Made by a program: the position numbers and the translations under genes
Shown here: positions 38,205 through 54,838 of the stretch, piece by piece
Position numbering within the stretch: the stretch's first letter is position 1
How the letters are laid out: each line of letters opens with the position of its first letter
Assembly (NCBI GenBank): GCA_026126125.1
Contig: JAHCJW010000004.1
Location: forward strand, 1 to 61,988
From: Devosia sp.
GTDB taxonomy: Bacteria > Pseudomonadota > Alphaproteobacteria > Rhizobiales > Devosiaceae
Direction: 5' to 3'
Length of the DNA: 61,988 nucleotides
The notes under the pieces: model-generated
The model's database searches: none
What the model was told of the DNA's origin: nothing
The model's input: the letters and a program-made list of their open reading frames with translations, nothing else

Positions 38205-39251
38205 CTAACCGATCCGCTGACCCGCCGCGTCGAAGGCGTGCAGGTTGGCGTCGTCGAAGGCGAGGCGGATGGGGGCACCGCGGGCGATGTCGAGCTGGCC
38301 GTCAAGGACGGTAATGATCTGCCCTGCCCCTTCCACATTGGCATGGAGGACGGTTTCGGCGCCAAGAGACTCGATCAGGAAAACCTCGGCGGCGATGGCA
38401 CGCTCCTCGGGCTGGGCCAGGCGCAAATGCTGGGGGCGAAGGCCCAGGGTCACCGGGCCCTCATGGACGACGGCGATCTGGGCGCCGCCGGGCAGCTCGG
38501 CCTTGCCGCTTTTGACCTCGACCTTGAAGAAATTCATGTTCGGCGCGCCGATAAAGCCGGCGACGAACAGGTTTTGCGGCTTGTTGTAGAGATTGAGTGG
38601 GGTATCGACCTGCTCGATCACGCCCTTGCGCAGCACCACGATGCGGTCGGCCAGCGTCATGGCCTCGACCTGATCGTGGGTGACGTAAATCATGGTGGTA
38701 GAGAGCCGGGCGTGAAGGGCCGAAAGCTCGGCCCGCATGGTGCCGCGCAGTTCAGCATCGAGGTTGGAGAGGGGTTCGTCGAGCAGGAACGCGGTGGGAT
38801 TGCGCACGATGGCCCTGCCGATGGCGACGCGCTGGCGCTGCCCGCCCGATAGCTGCGTGGGGCGGCGTCCGAGCAGTTCGTCGATCTCCAGCATGCGCGC
38901 CGCCTCATCGACGCGGGCGGCGATCTCCGCCTTGGGCATGCGCTGGTTTTCAAGCCCGAAGGAAAGGTTCTGGCGCACGGTCATATGCGGATAAAGCGCA
39001 TAGGACTGGAACACCATGGCCAGGCCCCGGTCGGCGGCGCCGGCCTTGGTTACGTCGCGGCCATCGATCTCGATACTGCCCGATGTCGGCGTGTCGAGTC
39101 CGGCGATCAGGCGCAAAAGCGTCGATTTTCCGCAGCCCGAGGGACCGACAAAAACCACCAGCTCGCCCTCCTTGATCTCAAGATCGACCCCGTGGATCAC
39201 CTCGACGGCGTCGAAGGCCTTGCGGATATTCTTCAAGACAATGCGGCCCAT
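38205..39251 (-). CDS. Sugar ABC transporter ATP-binding protein (sulfoquinovose cluster)
   Basis: A 348-residue MalK/UgpC-type ATPase: Walker A GPSGCGKST, Q-loop MVFQSYALYP, signature LSGGQRQRVAIGRA, Walker B AFLLDEPLSNLDAEL, switch VTHDQVEAMT, then a C-terminal TOBE domain. Last gene of the transporter half of the cluster, 9 bp after the MalG-like permease. Predicted to drive uptake of sulfoquinovose or its glycosides. Confidence 0.94.
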   Translation of the reverse strand: MGRIVLKNIRKAFDAVEVIHGVDLEIKEGELVVFVGPSGCGKSTLLRLIAGLDTPTSGSIEIDGRDVTKAGAADRGLAMVFQSYALYPHMTVRQNLSFGLENQRMPKAEIAARVDEAARMLEIDELLGRRPTQLSGGQRQRVAIGRAIVRNPTAFLLDEPLSNLDAELRGTMRAELSALHARLSTTMIYVTHDQVEAMTLADRIVVLRKGVIEQVDTPLNLYNKPQNLFVAGFIGAPNMNFFKVEVKSGKAELPGGAQIAVVHEGPVTLGLRPQHLRLAQPEERAIAAEVFLIESLGAETVLHANVEGAGQIITVLDGQLDIARGAPIRLAFDDANLHAFDAAGQRIG

Positions 39252-39260
39252 GCGCCCCTC

Positions 39261-40316
39261 CTATTTGATGCCTGCGCCGGCAATGCCGGTGGTGATGAAG
39301 CGCTGCAGGAAAATGAATACCAGGACCACCGGGATCATGGTCACCACGGTCATGGCAAGAATATAGTGCCACTGCACGTTGAGCTCGCCGGCATAGGTGT
39401 TGAGCCCGATCTGCAACGTGTAGAGCTCGCGCCGCGACAAGACGATCAGCGGCCAGAGGAAGTCGTTCCAGCGCCAGACCACCGAGAAGATGGCCAGCAC
39501 CGCCAGGGCGGGCGCCGCCAGCGGCAGGATGATGCGCCAATAGATCTGCCATTCGGAAGCGTGGTCCATGCGCGCCGCCTCGATCAATTCGTCGGGGATG
39601 GTGAGCATGTACTGGCGCAGCAGGAACACGCCGGTGGGTGTGGCGATGGTGGGCAGGATCACCCCCCAGAGCGAGTTGAGCAGCCCCACGGAACTGACCA
39701 CGGAATAGAGCGGCACGAGGATGACCGAGAGCGGAACCATCAGCGTCGCCACGATCAGCAGCATCACCGCGTCGCGCCCCTTGAAGCGGTATTTCGACAG
39801 GGCGAAAGCCGCCATGGAATTGGTCAGCAGCGTAAGCAGGGTGGCCATGACGGTGACGAAGACCGAATTGCCCAGGTAGCGCATGAAATCGAAGGCGAGG
39901 AACGGATCGGTATAATTGTTGATCGCCAGCCCCACCTCGCGCACCGGCTGCCTATCGGTGAGGCGGACGCTGACCCGCTCCTCCGGATTGGCCGGATCGA
40001 CCATCTGCGCCGAGGTGCCGATACGGCGGATCTCGGCCATCACGCGGGTGGAGCCGTCTTCCTGGGTCACCTGATAGAGCGGCAGCGGCGCGTCATAGCC
40101 TTCGACCTTGGCGACCTCCTGCACATAGGGTAGCAGGGTGGGCGGAAATTCGGCCAGCTGCGCCGGGCCCTTGAAGGAGGATGAGATCAGCCACAGGGCC
40201 GGGCCGAACATGATGATGGTTCCACCGATCAGCCAGATCCAGGTGACGATGTCGGTCCAGTGCCATTTGCCGGCGCGGCCGCGCCGGGCGAAGACGAAAT
40301 TGCGAACGGCGTTCAT
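39261..40316 (-). CDS. ABC permease, MalG-type with enlarged periplasmic loop (sulfoquinovose cluster)
   Basis: A 351-residue permease, about 65 residues longer than the other MalG-like subunits here. The extra length is a hydrophilic loop after the first membrane segment (about residues 60-130, with SRTRV-like and ADPANPEERVSVRL character). EAA loop LIEAARMDHASEWQIYWRII near residue 250. Overlaps the MalF-like gene by 4 bp. The enlarged loop may contact the binding protein. Confidence 0.92.
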   Translation of the reverse strand: MNAVRNFVFARRGRAGKWHWTDIVTWIWLIGGTIIMFGPALWLISSSFKGPAQLAEFPPTLLPYVQEVAKVEGYDAPLPLYQVTQEDGSTRVMAEIRRIGTSAQMVDPANPEERVSVRLTDRQPVREVGLAINNYTDPFLAFDFMRYLGNSVFVTVMATLLTLLTNSMAAFALSKYRFKGRDAVMLLIVATLMVPLSVILVPLYSVVSSVGLLNSLWGVILPTIATPTGVFLLRQYMLTIPDELIEAARMDHASEWQIYWRIILPLAAPALAVLAIFSVVWRWNDFLWPLIVLSRRELYTLQIGLNTYAGELNVQWHYILAMTVVTMIPVVLVFIFLQRFITTGIAGAGIK

Positions 40317-41323
40317 CGCGCATTCCCCTTTTCTGCCCGCCGCGACAGGCCCAGTTGGATGAGCGTCAGCACCACCAGCACCAGCCCCATGAGAATGGAA
40401 GCGGCGGCCGCCAGGCCCGGATTGCGCAGGAAGGAGGCAAAGCCGACTTCGTAGATATATTGGGTGATGAACAGCGTGCTGGTGCCCGGGCCACCGCCCG
40501 TCAGCACATAGGCTTCATCGAAAATCTGCACGCCCCGGATCAGCGCCAGCACCAGAACTACGGCCAGGTTTGGCCCCAGCAGCGGCAGGGTGATGCGCCA
40601 GAAGACGCGGCTGGCCGGGGTCGCGTCCATTTCGGCGGCCTCGTAAAGATCCTTGGGAATGGCCTGCAAACCGGCCAACAGGATCAGCGTGTAAAAACCC
40701 ATATGCGCCCAGGTCGAGACGCCGATGGCAGCCGAAAAAGCAAAGAAGCGGTCATTGAGCCAGACCACGGGATCGAAACCGAGCTGGGTGACGATCAGAT
40801 TCATCAGCCCCTGGCGTTGCAGGATCCAGCGCCAGATCAGCCCAACCACGACCGGGGAGAGCAGCACGGGGAAAAAGAAGACGGCCCGGAAGAAGCCGCG
40901 CCCGGCGATCTTGCGGTTGAGGATCAGTGCCGTGATCATGCTGACGCACACCATCAGGCTCACCTGGAACAGAACGAAGGTGCCGGTATTGCGCACGGCG
41001 GTCCAGAACTGGTCCTCCCGGCAGGTGGTGGACACCAGATAATCCTGGCATTCCAGCAGCCTTCCATATTGCCCGAGGCCGATGAAGCTGCGGTCCTTGA
41101 GCAGGATGTCGACCCCGCCCGTCATCGAATAGATGATGTTGAGCACCAGCGGAATGATGACGAACACCCCGAAGATCGCCATGTTGGGCAAGAGGAAGAA
41201 GGTGATCATGCCGCCGGTGCCCGTGCAGCGCTGCCACAGGCGCAGCACCGGATCGAGCCCCCGGGCGATGAGGACGAGTGGCAATGTTGCCACCCGTCCA
41301 GCAGTTTTCCCAAACCGCGCCAT
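40313..41323 (-). CDS. ABC permease, MalF-type (sulfoquinovose cluster)
   Basis: A 336-residue permease with a basic N-terminal tail, first membrane helix near residues 40-60, and EAA loop YEAAEMDATPASRVFWRITL near residues 230-250. A short periplasmic stretch contains two Cys (GRLLECQDYLVSTTCRED) that could form a disulfide, unusual for this family. Two bp after the binding-protein gene. Confidence 0.92.
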   Translation of the reverse strand: MARFGKTAGRVATLPLVLIARGLDPVLRLWQRCTGTGGMITFFLLPNMAIFGVFVIIPLVLNIIYSMTGGVDILLKDRSFIGLGQYGRLLECQDYLVSTTCREDQFWTAVRNTGTFVLFQVSLMVCVSMITALILNRKIAGRGFFRAVFFFPVLLSPVVVGLIWRWILQRQGLMNLIVTQLGFDPVVWLNDRFFAFSAAIGVSTWAHMGFYTLILLAGLQAIPKDLYEAAEMDATPASRVFWRITLPLLGPNLAVVLVLALIRGVQIFDEAYVLTGGGPGTSTLFITQYIYEVGFASFLRNPGLAAAASILMGLVLVVLTLIQLGLSRRAEKGNAR

Positions 41324-41325
41324 CC

Positions 41326-42600
41326 TTACTGACCGGCGGCTTCGACTTGGTCGGCGATGTCGCGGTCCATCATCTCGCGCGCCTGATCGATGGTGAGTTC
41401 ACCGGCCATGACCTGGCTGATGCGGGTGACGATTGCACCATAGACCGTGTTGCCCCAGACCCAGGCGGGCATGCGGTCGGCTTCCGGCAGGGTTTCGGCG
41501 GAGGCCGCGACATAGGCGTTCATGGCCGGCGGCACCATGGGATCGTCGGACTGGAAGTTCAGCCCGCCCTTGGCGACGATGCCGGAATGGGCCGGCAGGA
41601 ACAGGGTGCGCTCGCTGAATTCACGCACGATGTCTTCCGAAGCCAAATAGTCCATCACCCGCGCCACCTCTTCGGGATGCTTGGTGTATTTGACGGCGAC
41701 CATGGCCGCACCGCCTGCCATGCCCGAGCAACCGGCCGGGCCGCAAGGCGAGCCGACCACGACCCAGTCGAAGGCGTCGCCGATCTTGCCCGACAGGTTG
41801 GCGACCTGCCAGGAGCCCGAATAGTAGAACGGGATCTGGGCGTTGATGAAGTCGTCGGCTGCGGCGCGATAGGTCGTGCCGGCCGCCGAGACCCAGACTT
41901 CGGGCAGCATGAGGCCCTGGGCGGTCCAGTCGGTGAGGCGGGTGAAGAAATCCATGGCGCCGTCATTCATCGGCGCCGGCTTGCCGTCCTCACCGATGAA
42001 CTTGGCGCCATAGGAAATCGCCGGGCCCGCGACGCGGTGGCCGGAGCGGTCGATGGCGAAGGCGGCGGGCAGGCCCTGATCTTCCATCACTTTGCGGCTG
42101 GCCTCGGCCCATTCGTCCCAGGTGGCGCCATGGGCCGGCAGCTCGACGCCGGCCTGCTCAAACAGGGTGGCGTTGGCAAAGCCCCCGGTCAGGGTCAGCT
42201 GGGTCATGTAGCCGGGGATCGCATTGCTGCCATCCTCGCGCATCCAGTCGAAGCGGTCGCCGAAATTGGCGTCCCAATAGGCCGGATCGGCCACATAGGG
42301 GCGCAAATCGAGCCAGTGCTCGGCCTGGGCCTTGAGATTGGTGACGCGTGCGATATCGGGGCCGGCGCCAGAGGCCAGCTGGATCGGCAATTGCTCCTGG
42401 ATCACCTGATAGGCGACATTGTCGAGGATGATGTCGATATCGGGGTTCGCTTGCTCGAACCGGTCCAGCAGGTCGGCGATCACCTCGCCCTCGATGCCGT
42501 CGGAATACCACATGATGCGCACCTGGGTCGCATCTTGGGCAAAGGCGCTGGTGGCCATGGCGGCCAGAGCGATACCGGAAAGCCAAATCTTCGTTTTCAT
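41326..42600 (-). CDS. Solute-binding protein, probable sulfoquinovose/sulfoquinovosyl-glycerol receptor
   Basis: A 424-residue periplasmic receptor with signal peptide ending SAFAQDATQ. Typical CUT1 lobes: MWYSDGIEGEVIADLLDRFE at the start of the mature protein and FYYSGSWQVANL and GSPCGPAGCSGMAGGAAMVA later; the CGPAGC pair may be a disulfide. Substrate is assigned only from linkage to the sulfoquinovose pathway genes; SmoF-like receptors perform this role in Agrobacterium. The start is preceded by GGGAGGAG. The bases next to it contain CGCTACGAT, half of the operator found at 46362. Confidence 0.85.
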   Translation of the reverse strand: MKTKIWLSGIALAAMATSAFAQDATQVRIMWYSDGIEGEVIADLLDRFEQANPDIDIILDNVAYQVIQEQLPIQLASGAGPDIARVTNLKAQAEHWLDLRPYVADPAYWDANFGDRFDWMREDGSNAIPGYMTQLTLTGGFANATLFEQAGVELPAHGATWDEWAEASRKVMEDQGLPAAFAIDRSGHRVAGPAISYGAKFIGEDGKPAPMNDGAMDFFTRLTDWTAQGLMLPEVWVSAAGTTYRAAADDFINAQIPFYYSGSWQVANLSGKIGDAFDWVVVGSPCGPAGCSGMAGGAAMVAVKYTKHPEEVARVMDYLASEDIVREFSERTLFLPAHSGIVAKGGLNFQSDDPMVPPAMNAYVAASAETLPEADRMPAWVWGNTVYGAIVTRISQVMAGELTIDQAREMMDRDIADQVEAAGQ

Positions 42601-42615: not shown

Positions 42616-45123
42616 CTAAGACGGGCGGCCCAAGTGGGCCTCAAGCAAAACCCTGCGCGTTTGGATGGGGCCGCGAGGCAGGGTGTCCCGCGTTCCCAGA
42701 ACCGTAAAATCCTCCGGCGCGATGCGGCGGCCTTCGCCCAGCACCGTGCCATCGGCATGAAATTCGATCCTGCCGTAATCGGGGTCATCGACCACGATCC
42801 TTTCGCCATCGTCGCGCAGCTTGAGCGGGGCGAAACGCGCCCGGAATTGATCGACACCGCCATGCAGCGCCGCCGAGCCCAGCCGCACCAGCCACCAGGA
42901 TTTGCGGCCGGCAAGGCGCAATTCATGATTGGCGGTCGGGCCGTCCGAAACCTGTTCAAAGGCACTCGAGCCGCAGATGAACACGAGCCCTGCCCCGGAA
43001 GCTGCCCAGGCGCTGTCGCCCTCCACCCCGGCGGCGTCGAAATCAGGAGTCGGAAACCAGCAATGGGTGAAATCGGGCTGCGGGGGCATCCCGTCGAACA
43101 GCACGATGGAGAGGTCGCGATATTGCTGCACGCGCGGCACCGAGGCCGAACCGCCCCAATAGGATGGGCGCCCATTGCCGGAATGGATGATTTCGCCCGG
43201 ATGGTTGATCCAGATTTGCGCCTGCGGGTTGCTGCCAAGCCGCAAATGGAGCAGCGTTTCCTGATAGCCCCATTCGCCCCAGCGATAGAGCACGGCGCTG
43301 CCCATGGCGTGGTCGGCGCTCTTGTGATGATAAAGGCGGGCAAAGCCGCCCTCCCCTTGCGCGAAACGCCATTCCTCGGCGTCCTCGCCGGCCAGGCAGG
43401 CGCGCCCGCCCAGATCGGGAAGTTCCAATCCATGATCGCGCAGGCACAGGGCCAGCAGCGATGTCGCGTGGAAATGGCTGCCGAAACTGCCCCTGCCCCA
43501 GACCAGCCGGGCGATGGCGGACAGCTCCTGCGTTTGGGTGCTGCGCAGGCTGTGTTCATAGCTGCGCCCCTGCGCAGCGGTGAGCGCGCCGTGATGGGCC
43601 GAATTGGCGACGATTTCGAGCAGCCGGATGATGGCGCGGCCGGCGCGTTCGCGCAAGCCGGCATCGGGCGACAGTGCGAACAGCGCCGCCAGGCCTTTGA
43701 GATCGATGGGGAAATAGGGCGCGGAATTGAATTCGGCCATTTCCCAACACTCGAAATGGTCGAACCAGCCCTCCAGCCGCGCCAGGCCTACGGCGGATTG
43801 CTCGCGCCCGCTCCGCCCCGAGCGCGTGAACGTTGCATCGGGCAGCAGGGCCCCGGCCAGATGCGCCGCCGTATGGAACAACAGGGCATGATTTTCGGAG
43901 AAATACCACTGCACGTCATTGCCGGGCTCATCGAGCCAATAGCGATAGGAGAGGATCGCGCGGTCGATGCGGGCGCAGTCGGCCTCGCCTAACAGCTCCG
44001 GCCAACGCATGCGACACCAGAGCAGCGGCACCAGCGCGAAATCGGCACAATCCCAGCATTCCTCGATCTGGCGCAGTGCGGGATCGAGCAGGGCCCTGGT
44101 TTCGGCCCCGCCCTCGCCCAGGGCCAGAAGCGCCAGCAAGGCGGTCGTGCCAGATTCAGCATCGTCCGCCACCGCTGCCAGCGCCTCATCGATCCGCGCC
44201 TCGAGCGATGACGGCGCCTTGCCTTCACGGCTGGCATGGGAAATTTCCGTGCCATAGACCCGGCTGGCGCTAAAGCCATCGACGCCGAGGCGCAATGTAA
44301 GCTGGCGGACGCCCGCCGGCAGGGCGTCGGCCGGACCGATCTCGATCACGCGGCAATCGGGCGGCAATTCGCGCCGGATCACCAGCCCACCATCGAGCTT
44401 GATTTCCGCCGTGGCCGCCACGCCCAGCGGCTGTGCAAGCATGAGACGCAGATCGATGCCGTCATGGCTGGCGCGTTCGAAATGGGCGGATGCGAGCGCA
44501 GTCTCGATCGCGCTGGCCGCTTCGGGAGCGCAATCGATGGGAATAGCCTGCACCGCGCGCGGGCCGTCCACATAGTCGAGCTGGACATAAAAGCGCGCGT
44601 CCCGCTCGGCCAGATCATCGAAGAAGATTTCGATCCGGTTCTGGCCCTGGCCGAACTCGACCTCGGCCTCCACTGCGTGTTCGAAATTGCGGCGATATTC
44701 CGCCACAAAGGCCACTTCGCGTCCATTGACCCGCAGGATGGCGCCGCCGCAACTGGCCAGCCGCAGCACGCCGCGCCCCGCCTTCTCGGCCAGAATGACG
44801 GTTTCGGCGCGGGCGGCGATGCGCGTGGCGCGAAACCAGAAGCCGGACAGATCGAGCCGCGGCGAGCCGAAACCCAGCCAGACCTCGTCGGGCGCAGCGG
44901 TGGCGCGCTCATCGGGCCGGTTATGGCGGTAGCGCGCGGCAAATTCGATGCGGCAGGGATATTCGTGCGGGATGAAGTTCTTTTCTTTGGCGAGAAAGAA
45001 GAACGGGTCCATCTCCCCTTCCATGGCGCGTTCGGGGCTGTGGAACAGCTCGGCCGCCACGGCGGAATGCCGCCATAGCGTGATCGGTTCGCCATGCTCC
45101 AGCGGGCGCCTCAGCAGGTTCAT
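42616..45123 (-). CDS. 835-residue protein of unknown function, predicted beta-sandwich plus alpha/alpha barrel
   Basis: Start ATG 45123 chosen by position after GGGGGGCG; 48 upstream open codons look non-coding. I do not recognise the family. The N-terminal third (to about residue 270) looks like beta-sandwich modules (ILRVNGREVAFVAEYRR, QNRIEIFFDDLAERDARFYV). The middle (about 310-620) is helical and resembles alpha/alpha-barrel lyases or hydrolases, with WYFSENHALLFHTAAHLAG, EMAEFNSAPYFPIDLKGL and AAQGRSYEHSL. The C-terminal part is beta-rich with GEIIHSGNGRPSYWGGSAS. This architecture recalls heparinase/alginate-lyase-like proteins. No signal peptide, so cytoplasmic. It heads the sulfoquinovose transporter operon and may process the imported glycoside. 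Confidence 0.75.
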   Translation of the reverse strand: MNLLRRPLEHGEPITLWRHSAVAAELFHSPERAMEGEMDPFFFLAKEKNFIPHEYPCRIEFAARYRHNRPDERATAAPDEVWLGFGSPRLDLSGFWFRATRIAARAETVILAEKAGRGVLRLASCGGAILRVNGREVAFVAEYRRNFEHAVEAEVEFGQGQNRIEIFFDDLAERDARFYVQLDYVDGPRAVQAIPIDCAPEAASAIETALASAHFERASHDGIDLRLMLAQPLGVAATAEIKLDGGLVIRRELPPDCRVIEIGPADALPAGVRQLTLRLGVDGFSASRVYGTEISHASREGKAPSSLEARIDEALAAVADDAESGTTALLALLALGEGGAETRALLDPALRQIEECWDCADFALVPLLWCRMRWPELLGEADCARIDRAILSYRYWLDEPGNDVQWYFSENHALLFHTAAHLAGALLPDATFTRSGRSGREQSAVGLARLEGWFDHFECWEMAEFNSAPYFPIDLKGLAALFALSPDAGLRERAGRAIIRLLEIVANSAHHGALTAAQGRSYEHSLRSTQTQELSAIARLVWGRGSFGSHFHATSLLALCLRDHGLELPDLGGRACLAGEDAEEWRFAQGEGGFARLYHHKSADHAMGSAVLYRWGEWGYQETLLHLRLGSNPQAQIWINHPGEIIHSGNGRPSYWGGSASVPRVQQYRDLSIVLFDGMPPQPDFTHCWFPTPDFDAAGVEGDSAWAASGAGLVFICGSSAFEQVSDGPTANHELRLAGRKSWWLVRLGSAALHGGVDQFRARFAPLKLRDDGERIVVDDPDYGRIEFHADGTVLGEGRRIAPEDFTVLGTRDTLPRGPIQTRRVLLEAHLGRPS

Positions 45124-45199: not shown

Positions 45200-46240
45200 T
45201 CAGCTCGTCTGGCGGTGCACGAGGCCGAAGCCGGTGTCGATGCTAGGATGCTCGCGTGCCTCGCCATCGGCGAGACTCTTGATGATGAGGCGGGCCGCTT
45301 CGCTGCCGATCAGATCGCCGAAGGGCTTGATGGTGGAGAGGGCCGGATTGCAGGAGGCGGCGAATTCAAGGTCGCCGAAGCCGATAATGGCGTATTGTGC
45401 GGGGATGGCGACCTGCCGCCGCTGCGCCTCGAAGATCGCGCCGAGCGCCAGCAGATCGTTGGAGCAGCCGATGCCGACCCCTTCCGCGCCCTCGAATTCC
45501 TTCAGCATGCGCGCGAAGAGAATGCCGCCCAATTCGGTGGTGGCCGGCGCGGGATGGCTCAGATGCTGCACGGCAAGGCCCATCTCGCGCCCGGCGGCGA
45601 GAAAGCCGGCGGCGCGCTGGGCCGCCCGTTTGTCGTCATTGGCGCGCCCGCTGAAAAACACCAGCCTGCGCCGACCCCGCGCCGCCAGATGCCGCGCTGC
45701 GGCCGCCCCGACCTCATAGTGGTGAAAGCCCACCGCCATATCGATGGGCGCCTCGCCGCCCAATTCCCACACCTGGACCACAGGCACCCTTGCCGCTTCG
45801 AGCAATTGGCGCGTCGTCTTGCCATGCTCGGTCCCCGCGATCACCAGTGCCGCCGGCGCCCAGGATAGGGCCGTGCGCACCAGTTCGGTTTCCACCGCCT
45901 GGTCATATTCGGTATGGCCCAGCATGATTTGCAGCCGCGCCTGCCCCAATTCGCGCTGCAAGGCCGCCACCGTCTCGGCGAAAAAGGCATTGCGCACCGA
46001 GGGAACGATCACCCCGACAACGCTGGAGCCGGCCGCCGCCAACCCGCCGGCCATCATATTGGGCACGTAATTGAGCTCGCGGATCGCCGCCTGCACGGCA
46101 TCGCTCGCCCGGGGCGAAACCGCCTCGGGTCGGCGCAGGAACAGCGACACCGTCGATGGCGACACGTCGGCCCGACGGGCGACATCGACCATCGTCACTC
46201 CCTGAATTTTCCGGCGCCTGCGCGGAACCGCTACTGCCAC
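45200..46240 (-). CDS. LacI-family regulator of the sulfoquinovose cluster
   Basis: A 346-residue LacI/GntR(gluconate)-type regulator starting at GTG 46240 behind GGAGTGACGG. Basic N-terminus, then helix-turn-helix VTMVDVARRADVSPSTVSLF, hinge YVPNMMAGGLAAAGSSVVGV and effector domain (SVRNAFFAETVAALQREL through AIIGFGDLEFAASCNPALS). It sits at the divergence point between the transporter operon and the catabolic operon. Candidate operators are at 46253-46266 and 46362-46377, so it probably controls both arms and itself in response to a sulfosugar. Confidence 0.92.
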   Translation of the reverse strand: MAVAVPRRRRKIQGVTMVDVARRADVSPSTVSLFLRRPEAVSPRASDAVQAAIRELNYVPNMMAGGLAAAGSSVVGVIVPSVRNAFFAETVAALQRELGQARLQIMLGHTEYDQAVETELVRTALSWAPAALVIAGTEHGKTTRQLLEAARVPVVQVWELGGEAPIDMAVGFHHYEVGAAAARHLAARGRRRLVFFSGRANDDKRAAQRAAGFLAAGREMGLAVQHLSHPAPATTELGGILFARMLKEFEGAEGVGIGCSNDLLALGAIFEAQRRQVAIPAQYAIIGFGDLEFAASCNPALSTIKPFGDLIGSEAARLIIKSLADGEAREHPSIDTGFGLVHRQTS

Positions 46241-48179: not shown

Positions 48180-48962
48180 ATGAAAGCCTTCCAGGCGCTT
48201 CTTTCGACCAAAACGCCGCTCGGCACCTGGCTGATGGCCGCCGCGCCCAATACTGCCGAGGCGCTGGGCCATGCCGGCCTCGATTTCCTCGTGGTCGACA
48301 TGGAGCATGTCACCATCGAATTTTCCGACCTCGCCCACATCCTGCGCGCCATCGGCTGCACCCCATCCGTGCCGGTGGTGCGGCTGGCCTGGGCCGACAA
48401 GGTGCTGGTCAAGCGCGCCATGGATGCGGGAGCGGAAACGCTGATGCTGCCCTTCATCCAGACGACGGAAGAGGCCAGGGAGGCCGTGTCCTATATGCGC
48501 TATCCCCCCCACGGCGTCAGGGGCGTGGCGGCGGTGCATCGCGGCTCGCGCTTCGGCACCCTGCCCGGCTACCTGGTCGGCGCACATGAGCGGGCCTATT
48601 CCATATTGCAACTGGAAACGCCCGAGGCGGTCGCCAATCTCGATGCCATCGCCGCCGTCGAAGGTGTCGATGCCATCTTTGTTGGTCCCGGCGATCTCTC
48701 CGCCGCCATGGGCCATATCGGGGATATCGGTCATAAGGACGTGCAGGAATTGATCGCCCACGCCGCCAAAGCCGCTACCAAAGCCGGCAAGCCCATCGGC
48801 ATTGTCGGGCCCAATCCCACCATGGTGCGGCGCTTTCTCGATTATGGCTACAGCTTCGCCGCCGTTTCTTCCGACATGGGCATGATGACCAGCCGCGCCG
48901 GGGAATGGCTGGCCGAATTGCGCCAGGTGCAGGCGCCCGCCGCCAGCCAATCGGCCTATTGA
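48180..48962 (+). CDS. HpcH/HpaI-family class II aldolase, probable KDSG aldolase
   Basis: A 260-residue metal-dependent pyruvate aldolase. Active-site elements: catalytic His in VVDMEHVTIEF (near residue 43), Arg in VPVVRLAWAD, and metal ligands in LQLETPEAV (Glu) and VGPGDLSAAMG (Asp). Predicted to split the keto-deoxy sulfogluconate to pyruvate and 3-sulfolactaldehyde. Twelve bp after the dehydratase gene; its stop overlaps the lactonase start (TGATG). Confidence 0.88.
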   Translation: MKAFQALLSTKTPLGTWLMAAAPNTAEALGHAGLDFLVVDMEHVTIEFSDLAHILRAIGCTPSVPVVRLAWADKVLVKRAMDAGAETLMLPFIQTTEEAREAVSYMRYPPHGVRGVAAVHRGSRFGTLPGYLVGAHERAYSILQLETPEAVANLDAIAAVEGVDAIFVGPGDLSAAMGHIGDIGHKDVQELIAHAAKAATKAGKPIGIVGPNPTMVRRFLDYGYSFAAVSSDMGMMTSRAGEWLAELRQVQAPAASQSAY

Positions 48963-49843
48963 TGGACAGTCCCTTCCATTGCGTCGCCGATCTCGGCGCC
49001 CTTTTGGGCGAAAGCCCGGTCTGGGAGGCCGAACGGCAGACCCTGCGTTTCACCGATATCAACGGCAAGCGGTTGCATCGGTTCGACCCGCAGTCGGGGC
49101 GGATCGACACGCTCGATCTGTCCGAGGAACTGGGCTGTTTCGCTCCCCTCGCCGATGGCTCCATCGTCGCCGCCCAGCGCAGCGGCATTTACCGCATGGC
49201 GGCGGACGGCAGGCGGGAATTGCTCGCCACCAATCCCGAAACCTTCCCCGGCAGCCGCTTCAATGACGGCAGCACCGATCCGCGCGGGCGCTTGCTGGCC
49301 GGCACCATCGACCCCGAGCGGCAGGGCCGCGCCGCACTTTATCGTTTCGACCGGCGCGGGCTCGAAAAGCTCGCGGATGGGCTGATGACCTCCAATGGCC
49401 TGGCCTTTTCGCCCGATGGGCGCACGCTCTATCATTCCGATACGCTGCGCTACGTGATCCATGCCTATGATTACGACCTCGATCGCGGCGCGATTTCCAA
49501 CCGCCGGGTCTTCGCGCAACTCACCCCTACGGACACCGACCACGGCCGCCCCGATGGCGCGGCGGTAGACGCCGAGGGCTGCTACTGGTCGGCGCTCTAT
49601 CAGGGCGCGCGCGTGCATCGCTATGCGCCCTCGGGCGAATTGCTCGCCAGCTATCCCGTCCCCGCCCAATCGCCGACCATGCCCTGCTTTGGCGGGCCGG
49701 ACCTCAAAACCCTCTATGTCACCTCGGCCCGCGATGGCAGCAGTGACGAGCAGCTTGCCGCCTACCCGCTCTCGGGCGGTCTGTTTGCGCTGCGCGTCGA
49801 TGTGCCCGGCCTTCCCAAGACCTTTTTCGATCCGGAAGCCTGA
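48962..49843 (+). CDS. SMP-30/gluconolactonase-family lactonase, probable sulfogluconolactonase
   Basis: A 293-residue six-bladed beta-propeller lactonase. Metal ligands expected for SMP-30 are present: Glu in LLGESPVWE, Asn in FPGSRFNDGSTDP, Asn in LMTSNGLAFS and Asp in RPDGAAVDAEG. Start ATG 48962 overlaps the aldolase stop by one base. It would hydrolyse the lactone formed by the neighbouring SDR to the sugar acid used by the dehydratase. Confidence 0.88.
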   Translation: MDSPFHCVADLGALLGESPVWEAERQTLRFTDINGKRLHRFDPQSGRIDTLDLSEELGCFAPLADGSIVAAQRSGIYRMAADGRRELLATNPETFPGSRFNDGSTDPRGRLLAGTIDPERQGRAALYRFDRRGLEKLADGLMTSNGLAFSPDGRTLYHSDTLRYVIHAYDYDLDRGAISNRRVFAQLTPTDTDHGRPDGAAVDAEGCYWSALYQGARVHRYAPSGELLASYPVPAQSPTMPCFGGPDLKTLYVTSARDGSSDEQLAAYPLSGGLFALRVDVPGLPKTFFDPEA

Positions 49844-49844
49844 A

Positions 49845-50603
49845 ATGAATTATGATTCAGTCCGTTATGCCTCTCTTGCCGGCCAGCATGTGGTGATCAC
49901 CGGCGGCGCTTCGGGCATCGGCGCGGAAATGGTGCGCGCCTTCCGGGCGCAGGATGCATTGGTCAGCTTCCTCGATATCGACGCCGCCTCCGGCGCGGCG
50001 CTAGCAGCGGAAACCGGCGCCGGCTTCCACGCCTGCGACGTCACCGACATCGCTTCCCTGCGCGCAACGCTGGCCGCCGCCGAGGCCGAAACCGGCCCGG
50101 TTCGCGTCCTCGTCAACAATGCCGGCAGGGACGATCGGCACGAGTTGGACAGCGTCGAGCCAGACTATTGGCGCCGCATGCTGGCGCTCAATCTCGACCA
50201 CCAGTTTTTCGCCACCCAGGCGGTTCGCGCCGGCATGGCGACGGCGGGGGGCGGCTCGGTGATCATGTTGGGCTCGGTGTCGTGGATGCGCGGGCGGCCG
50301 GGCATGGTGGGCTATACCACCGCTAAGGCGGCGATCAACGGCATGACCCGCACGCTGGCGCGCGAGCTCGGCCCCCAGGCCATCCGCGTCAACTGCATCG
50401 TGCCCGGCGCCATCCTCACCGAGCGCCAGCAAAAGCTGTGGCTGACGCCCGAACTCAACCAGCAATTCATCGATTTGCAGGCCCTGAAATTCCGGCTCGA
50501 TGCCAGTCACGTCGCCCGCATGGCGCTGTTTTTGGGCTCCGAGGAAAGCGCCGGCGCCACCGGCGCCAATTTCATCGTCGATGCCGGCCTGACCCAGAAT
50601 TGA
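49845..50603 (+). CDS. SDR-family dehydrogenase, probable sulfoquinovose 1-dehydrogenase
   Basis: A 252-residue classical short-chain dehydrogenase starting at ATG 49845, one base after the lactonase stop; upstream open codons belong to the lactonase in another frame. Cofactor motif VVITGGASGIGAEM, an Asp (SFLDID) at the end of beta-2 favouring NAD+, structural LVNNAGRDD, and catalytic Ser/Tyr/Lys in GSVSWMRGRPGMVGYTTAK. Oxidises the C1 hydroxyl of the sugar to a lactone. Assignment to sulfoquinovose rests on operon context. Confidence 0.85.
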   Translation: MNYDSVRYASLAGQHVVITGGASGIGAEMVRAFRAQDALVSFLDIDAASGAALAAETGAGFHACDVTDIASLRATLAAAEAETGPVRVLVNNAGRDDRHELDSVEPDYWRRMLALNLDHQFFATQAVRAGMATAGGGSVIMLGSVSWMRGRPGMVGYTTAKAAINGMTRTLARELGPQAIRVNCIVPGAILTERQQKLWLTPELNQQFIDLQALKFRLDASHVARMALFLGSEESAGATGANFIVDAGLTQN

Positions 50604-50613
50604 GCGACACGCC

Positions 50614-52605
50614 ATGATCCGCCTCCACACCACGCCCAGCGGCTTTACCCTCCATCTCGGCGACAGGCTGCTGATCGCCCATGACGCGGCGGCGCCGGCC
50701 CTGTTCGTGGGACACGGCGATGCGCGCATGGACATGTATCGCGGCAATTTCGACATCGAGGATTATGTCAGCGAGCGCATCGCGCTACGCGGCGCGAAGA
50801 TCGAGGGCAATCGCGTCACTTTCTCGGCCAGCGCTGACAGCCCGCCGCTGCTGGCGCTCGAAGTGAGCGATGCCGGCCTGCAATTTGCCCCCCTCGATGT
50901 TAGCATCAACCGCTTCTGGCTGCGCATCGCCGCCGAGGCGGATGAGCATGTCTGGGGCGGCGGCGAGCAGATGTCCTATCTCGATTTGCGCGGCCGCCGC
51001 TTTCCGCTTTGGACCTCCGAGCCCGGCGTCGGCCGCGACAAGAGCACCGAGATCACCCGCCTCTCCGACCTGCACAACAAGGCCGGCGGGGATTATTGGA
51101 ACACCAATTATCCGCAGCCCACCTGGCTGTCCTCGCGCCGCTATAGCCTGCATGTGGACACCACTGCCTATTCGGCCTTCGATTTCCGCCACGCCGATTT
51201 CCACGAAATCGAGGTCTGGGAAATCCCGTCCCGCATCGAGCTGTTCGCCGGCGAAAATCTCGTCGACCTGGTCGGCGCGCTGTCGAGCCGTTTCGGCCGC
51301 CAGCCCGAAATGCCCGACTGGGTCTATCGCGGCGCCATTATCGGGCTCAAGGATGGCGAGAATTCCTTTGCGCGGCTGGAGAACATGCTCGCGGCGGGGG
51401 TCGAGGTGTCCGGGCTCTGGTGCGAGGACTGGGTGGGGCTGCGCCACACCAGTTTCGGCGCGCGCCTCTTCTGGGACTGGCAGGCCAATGAGAGCCGCTA
51501 TCCCCAGCTGTCCCGCCGCATCGCCGACTTGGACGCGCGCGGCATCAAATTCCTGGGCTATGTGAACCCCTATCTCGCCGCCGATGGCCCGCTCTTTACG
51601 GAAGCCGAGGCCGGCGGTTATTTCGCCACCAACGATGAGGGAAAGACGGCGCTGGTCGATTTCGGCGAGTTCGATTGCGGCGTGGTCGATTTCACCAATC
51701 AAGACGCCGCCGCATGGTTTGCCGAACGCGTCATCGGCCAGAACATGCTCGATTTCGGCCTCGCCGGCTGGATGGCCGATTTCGGCGAATATCTGCCCAT
51801 CGACGTGCATCTGGCCAATGGCGTTGATGCGCGACTGATGCACAATGCCTGGCCGACGCTGTGGGCCGAGGTCAATGCGCGCGCCGTCGCCAGCCGGGGC
51901 AAGACTGGCGAGGCGCTGTGGTTCATGCGTGCCGGCTTCACCGGCGTGCAGGCCCATTGCCCGCTGCTCTGGGGCGGCGACCAATCGGTGGATTTTTCCC
52001 GCCATGACGGACTGGTCACCGTCATCTGCGGTGCGCTGTCATCCGGCCTCGTCGGCAACGCCTATCACCACTCAGATATTGGCGGTTATACCAGCCTGTT
52101 CGGCAATCTGCGCACGCCGGAACTCATCATGCGCTGGTCTGAAATGGCGGCCTTCACCCCGGTCATGCGCAGCCATGAGGGCAATCGCCCCAAGGACAAT
52201 CTGCAACTCGACCAGGACGCGGACGTGCTCGCCCATTTCGCCCGCATGACACGGCTTTATCGCACCCTGGCGCCCTACCTTCGGCATCTTTCCGCCGAGG
52301 CGGCGTCGACGGGACTGCCGGTGCAGCGGCCGCTGTTCCTGCATTACGAGGCCGATGCGCAGACCCACACCATTCAGGACCAGTATCTCTACGGCGCCGA
52401 TATGCTCGTCGCCCCGGTGTGGCAGGCGGGCGCGGAAAGCCGCCAAGTCTATCTGCCCGCCGGCTCATGGGAACAGCTCTGGAGCGGCGAGAGCGTTCCT
52501 GGCGGAGACTGGATCGAGGCCCCTGCCCCGATCGGTTTTCCCGCGGTCTATTTCAATCCCGAAAGCCGCTTCGCGGACCTGTTCCGGCAGTTGCGCGCCC
52601 TATGA
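50614..52605 (+). CDS. yihQ: Sulfoquinovosidase, GH31 family (YihQ-like)
   Basis: A 663-residue alpha-glycosidase collinear with E. coli YihQ. Catalytic nucleophile Asp389 is in WMADFGEYLP and acid/base Asp456 in GGDQSVDF. Sulfonate-recognition positions read Lys246 (IIGLKDGEN), Glu271 (LWCEDWVG), Arg284 and Trp287 (ARLFWDW), that is the KERW variant I recall from the Agrobacterium enzyme, instead of QQRW in E. coli. It hydrolyses sulfoquinovosyl glycosides such as sulfoquinovosyl glycerol from plant sulfolipid. No signal peptide, so it acts after import. Ten bp after the SDR gene, 4-bp overlap with the exporter gene. Confidence 0.92.
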   Translation: MIRLHTTPSGFTLHLGDRLLIAHDAAAPALFVGHGDARMDMYRGNFDIEDYVSERIALRGAKIEGNRVTFSASADSPPLLALEVSDAGLQFAPLDVSINRFWLRIAAEADEHVWGGGEQMSYLDLRGRRFPLWTSEPGVGRDKSTEITRLSDLHNKAGGDYWNTNYPQPTWLSSRRYSLHVDTTAYSAFDFRHADFHEIEVWEIPSRIELFAGENLVDLVGALSSRFGRQPEMPDWVYRGAIIGLKDGENSFARLENMLAAGVEVSGLWCEDWVGLRHTSFGARLFWDWQANESRYPQLSRRIADLDARGIKFLGYVNPYLAADGPLFTEAEAGGYFATNDEGKTALVDFGEFDCGVVDFTNQDAAAWFAERVIGQNMLDFGLAGWMADFGEYLPIDVHLANGVDARLMHNAWPTLWAEVNARAVASRGKTGEALWFMRAGFTGVQAHCPLLWGGDQSVDFSRHDGLVTVICGALSSGLVGNAYHHSDIGGYTSLFGNLRTPELIMRWSEMAAFTPVMRSHEGNRPKDNLQLDQDADVLAHFARMTRLYRTLAPYLRHLSAEAASTGLPVQRPLFLHYEADAQTHTIQDQYLYGADMLVAPVWQAGAESRQVYLPAGSWEQLWSGESVPGGDWIEAPAPIGFPAVYFNPESRFADLFRQLRAL

Positions 52606-53381
52606 GTGGCGGCGTGCTCGATCTGGTGCTGGTCTGGCTGGTCGCCGGGGGCGCCGCCTGGGTGCAATCGCTCACCGGCTTTGCCTTTGGGCTGATCCTG
52701 GTCGGGGCCATCGGCCTCTTCCACCTGATCCCGCTGCCGGAGGCCGCGATCCTCTCCAGCCTGCTGGTTATCTTCAACGGCATGATGATGCTGCGCCGGG
52801 ATTGGCGCGCCATCGACCGGCAGGGCTTTGCGCTTCTGATGCTGGGGAGCCTGCCGGGGCTGCTGATCGGCTATGGGCTGCTGCTTTATCTGACCACCAG
52901 CGCGCTGTCGGCGCTGGCGCTTATCCTGGGCGCACTGATCATTTTCGGCGCGCTGCAATTGCTGCACCGTCCTGAGCCGCGCGAGCGGCGCAGCGGGCCG
53001 GTCTCCTTCATCACCACCGGCATGATCGGCGGCATCATGGGCGGGCTGTTTTCCACTGCCGGCCCGCCCATCATCTGGCAGATGTATCGCCAGCCTCTCA
53101 CCCATGTCATGGTGCGTTCCACGCTGGTCGCGGTTTTCTTCATCAATGCCGTGGCAAGGCTGGGGCTGGTCCTGGTCAGCACGGGCATTTCGGTGCGCGT
53201 GTGGCTGGCCGCTGCGGGGGCGCTGCCCATGGTGTTCCTGGGCACGCTGCTGGCCCAGAAATTTCCGCCCCCGGTCTCGTCCCTTGTCTTGCGGCGGAGC
53301 GCGGCCGCCCTGTTGCTGTTGTCCGGGCTGGCGCTGTGCCTGCCGCCGCTATTCACTCTCGCCAAGGAGATATTCTCATGA
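52602..53381 (+). CDS. TauE/SafE-family permease, probable sulfolactate exporter
   Basis: A 259-residue membrane protein with about eight hydrophobic segments and the two internal repeats of TauE/SafE: AAWVQSLTGFAFGLILVGAI in the first half and GMIGGIMGGLFSTAGPPIIW in the second. ATG 52602 overlaps the glycosidase stop (ATGA). In sulfo-ED bacteria a TauE-like permease is proposed to export the terminal C3 sulfonate, which suits its position next to the last enzyme. Confidence 0.88.
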   Translation: MSGGVLDLVLVWLVAGGAAWVQSLTGFAFGLILVGAIGLFHLIPLPEAAILSSLLVIFNGMMMLRRDWRAIDRQGFALLMLGSLPGLLIGYGLLLYLTTSALSALALILGALIIFGALQLLHRPEPRERRSGPVSFITTGMIGGIMGGLFSTAGPPIIWQMYRQPLTHVMVRSTLVAVFFINAVARLGLVLVSTGISVRVWLAAAGALPMVFLGTLLAQKFPPPVSSLVLRRSAAALLLLSGLALCLPPLFTLAKEIFS

Positions 53382-54838
53382 CCCAAGCGCTCAAGCTCGC
53401 CGACCCCAGCCTGCTCACCCACAATTGCCTGATCGGCGGGGTCTGGGTGGCGCCGGGCGAGGATGCCATCGCGGTGCGCGATCCCTTCGATAATGCGCTG
53501 ATCGCGCATGTGCCCGGGCTCGGGGCCGAGGCGGTCAACGAGGCCGTGGCCGCCGCCAAGGCGGCGATGCCGGCCTGGGCCGCGCGCCCCGCCAAGGAGC
53601 GCGCCGCCGTGCTGCGCCGCTGGTATGAGCTGATCCTCGCCAATGTCGAGGATCTGGCGCAGATCCTCACCGCCGAACAGGGCAAGCCGCTGGCCGAGGC
53701 CCGGGCCGAGATCACCTCCAATGCGGCGTATCTGGAATGGTTCGCCGAGGAGGCCAAGCGCGTCGAGGGCGACTTCATGGCCGGGCCCAATGCCAGCCAG
53801 CGCATCTTGGTGATGAAACAGCCCATCGGCGTCTGCGCCGCCATCACCCCGTGGAATTTCCCCAATGGCATGATTACCCGCAAGGCCGGCCCGGCGCTGG
53901 CCGCCGGCTGCGCCATGATCCTGAAACCCGCTAGCCAGACGCCGCTTTCGGCGCTGGCCCTGGCCGTGCTGGCCGAACGCGCCGGCGTGCCGCCCGGCAT
54001 ATTCTCGGTGATCACCGGCCCGGCCAAGCAGATCGGCGCCGCCATCACCTCCCATCCCGATATCGCCAAGATCAGCTTTACCGGCTCCACTGAAGTGGGC
54101 CGCTGGCTGCTCAAGGCGGCGGCCGACCAGGTCAAGCGCCTGTCGCTGGAACTGGGCGGCAATGCGCCCTTCCTGGTCTTCGACGATGCCGATCTCGATG
54201 CGGCCACCCAGGGCGCGCTGCTCTCCAAATTCCGCAATGCCGGCCAGACCTGCGTGTGCGCCAACCGCATCTATGTGCAGGAAAATGTGGCCGAAGCCTT
54301 CACCGAAAAGCTCATAGCGCATATGGACGGGCTGCGGCTGGGCCGGGGTACCGCGCCGGACGTCAATGTCGGCCCGCTGATCGACGAGCACGCCATGGCC
54401 AAGATGCAGGAGCATGTCAAGGATGCCCTCGCCCATGGCGCAGAGTTGCGCCGGGGCGGCAAGCCATCGGCGTTGGGCGGCACATTCTTTGAGCCGACCC
54501 TGATCACCGGGGTGACGCAGGAGATGAAGGTGGCGCGCGAGGAAACCTTCGCGCCGCTGGCCGCCATCATCACCTTCAAGGATGAAGCCGAGGGCGTGGC
54601 CATGGCCAACCAGTCCGAATTCGGCCTCGCCGCCTATTTCTACGCCCGCGACATCGGCCGCATCTTCCGCGTCGGGGAAGCGCTGGAAGCCGGCATGGTC
54701 GGCGTCAACACCCCCGCGCTTGCCAACGAAGTCGCCCCTTTCGGTGGCGTCAAGCAGTCCGGCATCGGCCGGGAGGGCTCCAAATACGGCATCGAGGAAT
54801 ATCTGGAGATCAAATATCTGGCGCTGGGCGGCATCTGA
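53378..54838 (+). CDS. Aldehyde dehydrogenase, probable 3-sulfolactaldehyde dehydrogenase
   Basis: A 486-residue GabD-like dehydrogenase from ATG 53378, behind AAGGAGA and overlapping the exporter stop. Motifs: TPWNFPNGMITRKAGPALAAG, FTGSTEVGRWLL, LELGGNAPFLVFDDADLD (general-base Glu) and FRNAGQTCVCANR (nucleophile Cys). The C-terminus GGVKQSGIGREGSKYGIEEY is typical of succinate-semialdehyde dehydrogenases. Within this operon it should oxidise sulfolactaldehyde to sulfolactate. Last gene of the operon. Confidence 0.88.
   Translation: MTQALKLADPSLLTHNCLIGGVWVAPGEDAIAVRDPFDNALIAHVPGLGAEAVNEAVAAAKAAMPAWAARPAKERAAVLRRWYELILANVEDLAQILTAEQGKPLAEARAEITSNAAYLEWFAEEAKRVEGDFMAGPNASQRILVMKQPIGVCAAITPWNFPNGMITRKAGPALAAGCAMILKPASQTPLSALALAVLAERAGVPPGIFSVITGPAKQIGAAITSHPDIAKISFTGSTEVGRWLLKAAADQVKRLSLELGGNAPFLVFDDADLDAATQGALLSKFRNAGQTCVCANRIYVQENVAEAFTEKLIAHMDGLRLGRGTAPDVNVGPLIDEHAMAKMQEHVKDALAHGAELRRGGKPSALGGTFFEPTLITGVTQEMKVAREETFAPLAAIITFKDEAEGVAMANQSEFGLAAYFYARDIGRIFRVGEALEAGMVGVNTPALANEVAPFGGVKQSGIGREGSKYGIEEYLEIKYLALGGI

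What the first reader, a model, noticed from the sequence alone, without database searches (positions are those of the whole stretch)
38205..54838. Complete sulfoglycolytic Entner-Doudoroff cluster with its own importer and regulator
The order dehydratase, aldolase, lactonase, SDR, YihQ-type GH31, TauE/SafE permease and aldehyde dehydrogenase is read directly, in one tight plus-strand operon divergent from a CUT1 importer and a LacI gene. Established knowledge: this set is the sulfo-ED route from sulfoquinovose to pyruvate and exported sulfolactate described in Pseudomonas putida SQ1 and Rhizobium leguminosarum. Inference: this organism grows on plant sulfolipid sugars. No mutarotase is present, and an extra large protein is, so this is a variant layout.
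Basis: partly seen in the sequence, partly recalled or inferred. Interest (0 to 1): 0.8.

Follow-up and report, generated by a model that had tools for sequence, protein, structure and literature searches.

The report
Sulfosugar-eating operon with a borrowed importer
The genes for breaking down the plant sulfolipid sugar sulfoquinovose are really there and are of a known kind, but the sugar importer beside them is not the usual one: it comes, with a large uncharacterised protein, from gene sets that break down uronic-acid sugars, which suggests that the sulfosugar pathway has taken over another pathway's uptake system.

Summary
Seven tightly coupled genes (46422-54838) encode a complete sulfo-ED route; sulfoquinovosidase, SQ dehydrogenase and sulfolactaldehyde dehydrogenase match solved sulfoglycolytic enzymes and keep their contact residues. 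Lack of a mutarotase is not a variant: three sulfo-ED plasmids searched whole have none.

"Its own importer" needs correcting. The binding protein is 22% identical to that of rhizobial sulfo-ED operons but 54-83% to those of another module, typically GH88-KduI-large protein-importer-KduD, for unsaturated uronides. The "extra large protein" belongs to it: GH88 stands nearby in 44 of 47 genome loci. It lacks Pfam, NCBIfam and PDB sequence relatives; its C-terminal part resembles uronate lyases (18 of 18 Foldseek hits at E<=0.001, TM 0.32-0.47).

Here GH88 and KduI were not found in the 91%-complete genome, and the module follows the SQ-type LacI gene, whose conserved operator lies at 46362-46377. 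Of 17 sulfo-ED clusters, 12 have the usual importer, 4 this type, none both adjacent.

Most likely a uronide importer was captured for sulfoquinovose glycosides. Transport is untested.

The parts
38205..39251 (-). ATPase of the CUT1 importer (uronide-module type)
   Evidence: PF00005, TOBE_2; 83% to L081, 48% to the usual sulfo-ED ATPase
39261..40316 (-). CUT1 permease 2
   Evidence: PF00528; 90% to L081, 32% to the usual sulfo-ED permease
40313..41323 (-). CUT1 permease 1
   Evidence: PF00528; 91% to L081, 36% to the usual sulfo-ED permease
41326..42600 (-). Solute-binding protein, N-terminus like a signal peptide; nested among uronide-module binding proteins
   Evidence: PF01547; 83% to L081, 54-78% to the other module SBPs, 22% to the usual sulfo-ED SBP; tree
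42616..45123 (-). Large protein (BIG), putative cytoplasmic uronate lyase family, about 835 aa
   Evidence: no Pfam, NCBIfam or PDB sequence match; GH88 nearby in 44 of 47 loci; AF2 pLDDT 87.5 and 87.0; Foldseek
45200..46240 (-). LacI-family regulator of the sulfoquinovose type
   Evidence: LacI HTH; 58% to LacI of the Rhizobium sulfo-ED cluster, 68% to that of L081
46252..46267 (.). Degenerate second operator-like site (3 mismatches) just upstream of the LacI start; uncertain, may be chance
46362..46377 (.). Conserved sulfoquinovose LacI operator ATCGTAGCGCTATGAT, upstream of the dehydratase gene
   Evidence: exact, the only exact site in the own genome; exact in 12 of the 16 other clusters
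46422..48167 (+). 6-deoxy-6-sulfogluconate dehydratase (IlvD/Edd family)
   Evidence: PF00920 + PF24877; 82% to the Rhizobium sulfo-ED dehydratase
48180..48962 (+). KDSG aldolase (HpcH/HpaI family)
   Evidence: PF03328; 69% to Rhizobium
48962..49843 (+). Sulfogluconolactonase (SMP-30/SGL family); start inferred
   Evidence: PF08450; 54% to Rhizobium
49845..50603 (+). Sulfoquinovose 1-dehydrogenase (SDR); start inferred
   Evidence: best PDB match 9gwu, Sulfoquinovose 1-dehydrogenase, with D99, R101, R152, R154, Q198 kept (residues)
50614..52605 (+). Sulfoquinovosidase, GH31, YihQ type
   Evidence: PRK10426 937.6 bits; best PDB matches 5ohy/5ohs, YihQ
52602..53381 (+). TauE/SafE (TSUP) permease, probable sulfolactate exporter; start inferred
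   Evidence: PF01925; 44% to Rhizobium
53378..54838 (+). Sulfolactaldehyde dehydrogenase (ALDH); start inferred
   Evidence: best PDB match 8c54, taken to be RlGabD because its numbering gives every residue the paper names; R171, R289, C295, E261 kept

Best explanation
A complete sulfo-ED operon whose usual ABC importer has been replaced by a uronide-type CUT1 importer. Sulfoquinovosyl glycerol or SQ enters through the importer at 38205-42600 (inferred); YihQ releases SQ in the cytoplasm; SDR, lactonase, dehydratase and aldolase turn it into pyruvate and sulfolactaldehyde; the ALDH makes sulfolactate, which the TauE/SafE permease exports (all inferred from homology and residues). The importer was taken over together with the large protein, a putative uronate lyase, from a GH88-KduI-BIG-importer locus such as the one that still stands beside sulfo-ED in Pelagibacterium sediminicola. 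GH88 and KduI were lost and the rest now follows the SQ-type LacI gene, so that SQ probably controls both. The large protein is either a passenger under weaker constraint or keeps a side role on uronides.
For: Enzyme identity with contact residues. SBP phylogeny: the window nests deep among uronide-module SBPs and is 22% identical to the usual one. Importer tally of 17 clusters with dehydratase, aldolase and YihQ: 12 usual, 4 uronide-type (window, L081, L087, L116), 1 symporter only, none with both beside the cluster (plus window). No GH88 in the own genome; its one PF04962 hit is only 25% to KduI over 153 aa; no close match to the usual SBP (best 36%). LacI is SQ-type, its operator is exact, and the large protein starts about 76 bases after the LacI stop on the same strand. 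The large protein's branch is 0.45 against 0.19 in its sister, while the SBP's is 0.12 against 0.10. SBP residue 131 is Tyr in the window, L081/L008, L087 and L116 but Phe in 32 of 32 relatives not beside sulfo-ED genes.
Against: No transport or expression data. The exact operator faces the enzyme operon; the site near LacI has 3 mismatches and may be chance. The large protein is intact and its pairwise dN/dS is 0.22, so it is not a plain relic; permease 1 is also faster in the window (ratio 2.12 against 1.72 for the large protein). The association rests on two or three lineages (Devosiaceae, Microvirga, perhaps L111, which has Leu at SBP 131). In P. sediminicola the importer is still in a full uronide module. 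Some plasmids carry both systems apart (Shinella WSC3-e and HZN7: uronide module and YihQ on one plasmid), so a shared genome alone means little. The genome is 91% complete, so GH88 could be missed.
Confidence: 0.6

Rival explanations
1. Two unrelated neighbouring operons: the importer and large protein still take up and cut uronic-acid oligosaccharides, and SQ enters by some other transporter.
For: The importer and large protein are most similar to GH88/KduI modules; the lyase-like residues N412, H413 and Y471 are kept in the window; two other importer-bearing loci, L009 and L028, also lack GH88 nearby.
Against: GH88 is absent from the genome as held and KduI was not found; the LacI gene directly upstream is SQ-type; no close match to the usual SQ importer was found elsewhere; among the 17 clusters counted, the uronide-type importer stands only beside those without the usual one (4 of 17, plus window).
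Confidence: 0.22
2. The large protein is functionally part of the operon: a working uronate lyase, so that one SQ-responsive regulon scavenges sulfonated and carboxylated plant glycosides together through one importer for sugars with an acidic C6.
For: Uronide and SQ genes stand together in two lineages: a full GH88-KduI module beside sulfo-ED in P. sediminicola and importer-GH31-UxuA-sulfo-ED-GlpK-GlpD in two Microvirga plasmids. The window protein differs at only four columns that are invariant in the other 38 rows (columns with more than two gaps left out).
Against: No GH88 or KduI found to use a lyase product; faster evolution of the protein.
Confidence: 0.12
3. One reading: the importer is the ordinary, orthologous SQ importer of sulfo-ED operons.
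For: It is a CUT1 importer in the expected neighbourhood beside a LacI gene; SmoF is among its remote PDB matches (E 8.8e-08).
Against: 22% SBP identity to the usual sulfo-ED SBP against 54-83% to uronide-module SBPs; SmoF ranks fourth behind other sugar SBPs.
Confidence: 0.03
4. The pathway degrades another sulfosugar, such as sulfofucose.
For: The sulfofucolytic ED route uses mostly the same families (PMC12421959, passages).
Against: Its dehydratase is PF13378/PF02746, whereas this one is PF00920; SQ dehydrogenase contacts and a YihQ-type SQase are present, and the E. coli and Agrobacterium SQases are reported inactive on PNP alpha-sulfofucoside.
Confidence: 0.02

Closest known systems
Sulfo-ED operon of rhizobia (Rhizobium sp. 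WSM4643 L088, Shinella sp. WSC3-e L086; R. leguminosarum SRDI565 in print)
   Same: Same seven-gene order dehydratase-aldolase-lactonase-SDR-SQase-TSUP-SLADH, same type of divergent LacI, same operator, no mutarotase
   Different: There the importer (ATPase-SBP-permease-permease) leads the operon on the same strand; here it is absent and a non-orthologous uronide-type importer with a large extra protein stands on the other strand behind the LacI gene
GH88-KduI-BIG-CUT1 uronide module (Phyllobacterium zundukense L054, Shinella sp. HZN7 L051, Gemmobacter fulvus L052, Pannonibacter L055)
   Same: Homologous large protein and all four importer genes in the same order
   Different: Here GH88, KduI and the module's own LacI are missing and the module follows the SQ-type LacI gene
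Pelagibacterium sediminicola locus (L008/L081, genome handle G128)
   Same: Same large protein, importer and sulfo-ED set side by side
   Different: Complete uronide module in convergent orientation at the far end of the enzyme operon; no close ALDH gene in the cluster; LacI gene without the module behind it
Uronate lyases Alg17c (PL17), Atu3025 and heparinase III (families PL15 and PL12 recalled)
   Same: Predicted alpha/alpha toroid plus beta sheet; H413 and Y471 spaced much as H202/Y258 of Alg17c (58 against 56 residues)
   Different: No detectable sequence similarity, modest TM-scores (0.34-0.46 to the model), extra N-terminal beta domains, no activity known

Membership tests
Sulfo-ED pathway gene cluster | PF00920 sulfogluconate dehydratase (marker against the sulfofucose route) | tested here: met
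   PF00920 E 5e-102; 82% to the Rhizobium cluster enzyme
Sulfo-ED pathway gene cluster | SQ dehydrogenase with SQ-contact residues D99, R101, R152, R154, Q198 | tested here: met
   alignment to 9gwu, residues named in PMC12133307
Sulfo-ED pathway gene cluster | Lactonase and KDSG aldolase in the operon | tested here: met
   PF08450, PF03328
Sulfo-ED pathway gene cluster | Sulfoquinovosidase of the YihQ type | tested here: met
   PRK10426 over cut-off; the five sulfoquinovoside-binding positions (K, E, R, W, Y; labels recalled) identical in the alignment to 5ohy
Sulfo-ED pathway gene cluster | SLA dehydrogenase with R171/R289 pair | tested here: met
   alignment to 8c54, residues from PMC10599462
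Sulfo-ED pathway gene cluster | Usual sulfo-ED ABC importer | tested here: not met
   SBP 22%; not found elsewhere in the genome (best 36%). Not essential to the pathway definition: 5 of 17 clusters lack it (plus window)
Sulfo-ED pathway gene cluster | Growth on SQ with release of sulfolactate | not testable with these tools
   needs culture
GH88/KduI uronide utilisation module | Large protein and CUT1 importer | tested here: met
GH88/KduI uronide utilisation module | GH88 unsaturated uronyl hydrolase | tested here: not met
   no PF07470 match in the 91%-complete genome
GH88/KduI uronide utilisation module | KduI | tested here: not met
   only PF04962 hit is 25% to KduI over 153 aa, E 0.013; it may be IolB, same Pfam family (recalled)
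GH88/KduI uronide utilisation module | KduD | not tested
   not searched genome-wide
Uronate lyase superfamily (large protein) | Alpha/alpha toroid with antiparallel beta sheet | tested here: met
   18 of 18 Foldseek hits at E<=0.001 act on uronates; but TM only 0.32-0.47, and the full-length model's top hits are mostly GH2-type proteins
Uronate lyase superfamily (large protein) | Catalytic Asn/His and Tyr | tested here: inconclusive
   N412, H413, Y471 invariant in 39 of 39 aligned rows; role inferred from spacing, not from superposition
Uronate lyase superfamily (large protein) | Lyase activity | not testable with these tools
   needs enzyme assay

The most novel reading that the evidence does not exclude
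One SQ-responsive regulon has fused two salvage systems: a single importer for sugars with an acidic C6 carries both sulfoquinovosyl and glucuronosyl glycosides of plant lipids or cell walls, the sulfo-ED enzymes consume the first, and a so far undescribed uronate lyase family (the large protein) acts on the second. Uronide importers would then have been recruited to sulfoquinovose more than once (Devosiaceae, Microvirga), with Phe131 to Tyr in the binding protein as a possible specificity switch.
Probability: 0.15. Interest if true: 0.72.

Novelty: new variant of a known kind. Interest (0 to 1): 0.42.

Why it matters
The enzymatic part adds a Devosiaceae member to a known pathway. The uptake part matters more: it suggests that importers for carboxylated sugars can be taken over for the sulfonated one, which can be tested with one purified binding protein. 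It warns against naming a sugar importer by its neighbour. It also points to a protein family without any Pfam, NCBIfam or PDB sequence relative found here, with 47 genome loci and 115 plasmid records matched over at least 80% of its length (of 199 with any match), that looks like a new family of uronate lyases. And it offers a DNA operator by which sulfoquinovose regulons could be searched for.

Tried and rejected
Rejected: sulfofucose route (wrong dehydratase family). Rejected: the large protein as a mis-called ORF; it is open, has the codon-position G+C pattern of coding DNA, and 46 of its 47 genome relatives match over most of its length (L048 in part). Rejected: missing mutarotase as a variant feature. 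Rejected as too weak: a 'hybrid' SQ/uronide operator near LacI. The one-mismatch form of the operator says nothing genome-wide: 17 rows against 122 for the control pattern; only the exact match counts. Considered: the large protein as dead relic; not supported, since it is intact with pairwise dN/dS 0.22. Led nowhere: MR_MLE genes in the Merri strain; distant ORFs of L111 (five of six without a Pfam match, one a protease-like RTX protein); the YihQ plasmid of Novosphingobium (no sulfo-ED genes annotated around it); literature on importer or operator.
Full report
Observation. With inferred starts, lactonase overlaps aldolase by one base, TauE overlaps YihQ and ALDH overlaps TauE by four bases, and the other gaps are 1 to 12 bases. 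The window is bases 1-61988 of contig C237 of a 3.9 Mb, 302-contig assembly, 91% complete.

The enzymes. GH31 scores 937.6 bits on PRK10426 (cut-off 553) and aligns end to end with the solved YihQ proteins 5ohy and 5ohs (1133 and 1131 bits). The SDR's best PDB match is sulfoquinovose 1-dehydrogenase 9gwu (E 1.2e-83). The residues that PMC12133307 (passages) names as touching SQ (D99, R101, R152, Q198, and R154 through water) and the catalytic N119, S147, Y160, K164 are all kept (counted by me on the printed alignment, whose numbering runs 13 ahead). The ALDH's best PDB match is 8c54 (E 1.5e-229); its own numbering gives every residue that PMC10599462 (passages) names for RlGabD (W162-N163-F164, R171, E261, R289, C295), so I take it to be that protein, and the window keeps them all. 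The dehydratase is PF00920, the family that PMC12421959 (passages) names as the mark of the SQ route against the sulfofucose route. The steps from SQ to pyruvate and sulfolactate thus follow from homology and residues; activity is not shown.

Comparison with ordinary sulfo-ED clusters. Annotated Rhizobium WSM4643 (L088) and Shinella WSC3-e (L086) plasmids read LacI, then ATPase-SBP-permease-permease-dehydratase-aldolase-lactonase-SDR-SQase-TSUP-SLADH. The core order is that of the window. The plasmids of L086, L087 and L088, searched whole, have no aldose epimerase (PF01263; 0 of 3), although plasmids are not whole genomes; the window's genome has three, none in its contig. The seven enzymes and permease of the window are 44-82% identical to L088 (LacI 58%), but the importer's SBP only 22%, permeases 32% and 36%, ATPase 48%.

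Where the importer comes from. The large protein has no Pfam, NCBIfam or PDB sequence match (among its 39 aligned members the most frequent Pfam hit is a weak PA14 match in 7, best E 0.0012). It has 47 relatives in genome contigs and matches in 199 plasmid records, 115 of them over at least 80%. In annotated examples the order is GH88-KduI-large protein-SBP-permease-permease-ATPase(-KduD, not in Pannonibacter), or a TRAP version. Of the 47 loci, 44 have GH88 in the fetched stretch (not L009, L028, L048), 31 KduI, 28 the same importer, 6 the TRAP type, and one, L008, sulfo-ED genes. The window SBP is 83% identical to that of P. sediminicola and 54-78% to the other module SBPs; in the tree of 38 SBPs it nests deep inside them. 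In P. sediminicola (L081) the complete module LacI-GH88-KduI-large protein-importer runs into the sulfo-ED operon tail to tail, with ends overlapping by four bases.

What is lost here. The own genome has no PF07470 (GH88) match. Its single PF04962 hit is only 25% identical to KduI over 153 residues. It has no close relative of the usual sulfo-ED SBP (best 36%). KduD was not searched. The large protein and importer now follow the LacI gene on the same strand, about 76 bases after its stop, and that LacI is the SQ type (58% to L088, 68% to L081's sulfo-ED LacI).

The operator. By eye on L088, L122, L086, L081 and the window I wrote the pattern ATMRTAGCGCTAYKAW. In a shorter form it occurs exactly at one place in the own genome, 46362-46377; with one mismatch it is rarer than its control (17 rows against 122), so only the exact match counts. 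It is exact in 12 of the 16 other clusters (L081, L086, L088, L109, L117-L124), of which L109, L117-L121, L123 and L124 were not used to write it; it is also in L110 and L051. It is missing from L083, whose stretch ends inside the ATPase gene, and from L087, L089 and L116. A second site at 46252-46267 has three mismatches and may be chance: 11 matches at up to three mismatches against 3.5 expected in the window, several of them one palindrome read on both strands.

Importer tally. I fetched 13 of the 20 plasmid records with a YihQ match of 60-80% and one below that, and stretches of 13 genomes by handle, 12 of which have a YihQ match; 7 of the 18 order-wide matches were not fetched. Of these 26 YihQ stretches, 16 have dehydratase, aldolase and YihQ (L089 without SDR in the stretch). 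With the window they are 17: usual importer 12 (L083, L086, L088, L089, L109, L117-L123; L089 also a symporter), uronide-type 4 (window, L081, L087, L116), symporter only 1 (L124), both usual and uronide-type none. The 10 dropped, for lack of the dehydratase in the stretch, are L084, L090, L107, L108, L110, L111 and L112-L115. Of these L110 has the usual importer, L111 a distant uronide-type one (SBP 42% to the window) beside SDR, lactonase and YihQ, and L084 (55% complete) broken pieces of a window-like locus. Rows from one lineage are not independent; the uronide-type cases are two lineages, perhaps three. Some plasmids hold both systems apart: Shinella WSC3-e has YihQ at 255560 and the large protein's relative at 292685, HZN7 at 456477 and 430241.

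Signs of a changed role. In the tree of 39 large proteins the window's end branch is 0.45 and its sister's 0.19; in the SBP tree they are 0.12 and 0.10. By counted dN the ratio window to sister is 1.72 for the large protein, 1.41 SBP, 2.12 permease 1, 1.10 permease 2, 1.25 ATPase, and 1.08-1.23 for three sulfo-ED enzymes. The speed-up is therefore moderate and not confined to the large protein. SBP residue 131 is Tyr in the window, L081/L008 (one genome), L087 and L116, Phe in all 32 rows not beside sulfo-ED genes, and Leu in L111. The usual SQ SBPs also show Tyr there, but that alignment is at 22% identity.

The large protein's nature. AlphaFold2 gave pLDDT 87.5 (whole) and 87.0 (C-terminal 541 residues). 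Foldseek of the whole model is led mostly by GH2-type proteins (50 of 152 hits at E<=0.001 shown). The C-terminal part has 18 hits at E<=0.001, and all 18 are uronate lyases or a uronate epimerase (alginate lyases, heparinase III, GAG lyases, chondroitin and hyaluronate lyases, dermatan sulfate epimerase), with TM 0.32-0.47. The PDB titles name H202 and Y258 of Alg17c as mutated; H413 and Y471 of the large protein are similarly spaced and, like N412, invariant in 39 of 39. That these are catalytic is inference.

Literature. Read in passages only: PMC12133307, PMC10599462, PMC12421959, PMC12890257, PMC13372026. The two founding papers on P. putida SQ1 and R. leguminosarum were not held. Four searches of the held library listed no paper, judged by title and start of abstract, on a uronide-type importer in sulfo-ED clusters, on this protein family, or on the operator; most subscription papers are not in that library.

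Verdict. A sulfo-ED operon of known kind, with an importer and a lyase-like protein taken from another pathway. The origin of the importer is well supported; what it carries is inferred.

Noticed in passing
L087:1211-20036 and L116 (two Microvirga plasmids): A 47-48%-identical uronide-type importer SBP, a non-SQase GH31, mannonate dehydratase UxuA, the sulfo-ED genes, GlpK and GlpD run in one direction; uronide and sulfoquinovose genes together in a second lineage, without the SQ operator.
   Followed up: partly
L081:248-19106 (Pelagibacterium sediminicola): Complete KduD/LacI/GH88/KduI/large protein/importer module tail to tail with a sulfo-ED operon, ends overlapping by 4 bases; no close ALDH gene in the cluster.
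   Followed up: yes
28 of 54 module loci scanned, upstream of GH88 (for example L010-L016, L029-L033, L051, L054, L085): A site like TCRNNTTGCGCA lies about 57-107 bases before GH88, probably the operator of the module's own LacI.
   Followed up: partly
The genome search, (for example L066-L080): More distant relatives of the large protein (28-34% identity) occur in 31 further genomes of the 136 searched in the family, and as a second copy in G130; their neighbours were not studied.
   Followed up: no
L084 (G068, 55% complete genome of the same genus): ALDH and TauE followed by a YihQ gene lacking its middle, the end of an SDR gene and, on the other strand, the end of a window-type ATPase: a deletion-ridden copy of a window-like locus, or misassembly.
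   Followed up: partly
window 55614-56516, 56754-61567: LacI-type sugar-binding domain ORF without a recognisable HTH (Pfam), next to another CUT1 importer, a xylose-isomerase-like TIM barrel and a Gfo/Idh/MocA gene.
   Followed up: no
window 31148-37627: Binding protein, ceramidase-like, amidohydrolase, SIS-domain and glucosamine-6-phosphate-isomerase-like genes with a LacI gene: probably an amino-sugar cluster directly beside the importer.
   Followed up: no
window 19925-25719: Intradiol dioxygenase, alpha/beta hydrolase and FAD monooxygenase genes with a LysR gene: an aromatic degradation cluster.
   Followed up: no
window 4652-6756: Two adjacent DUF2804 genes in tandem.
   Followed up: no
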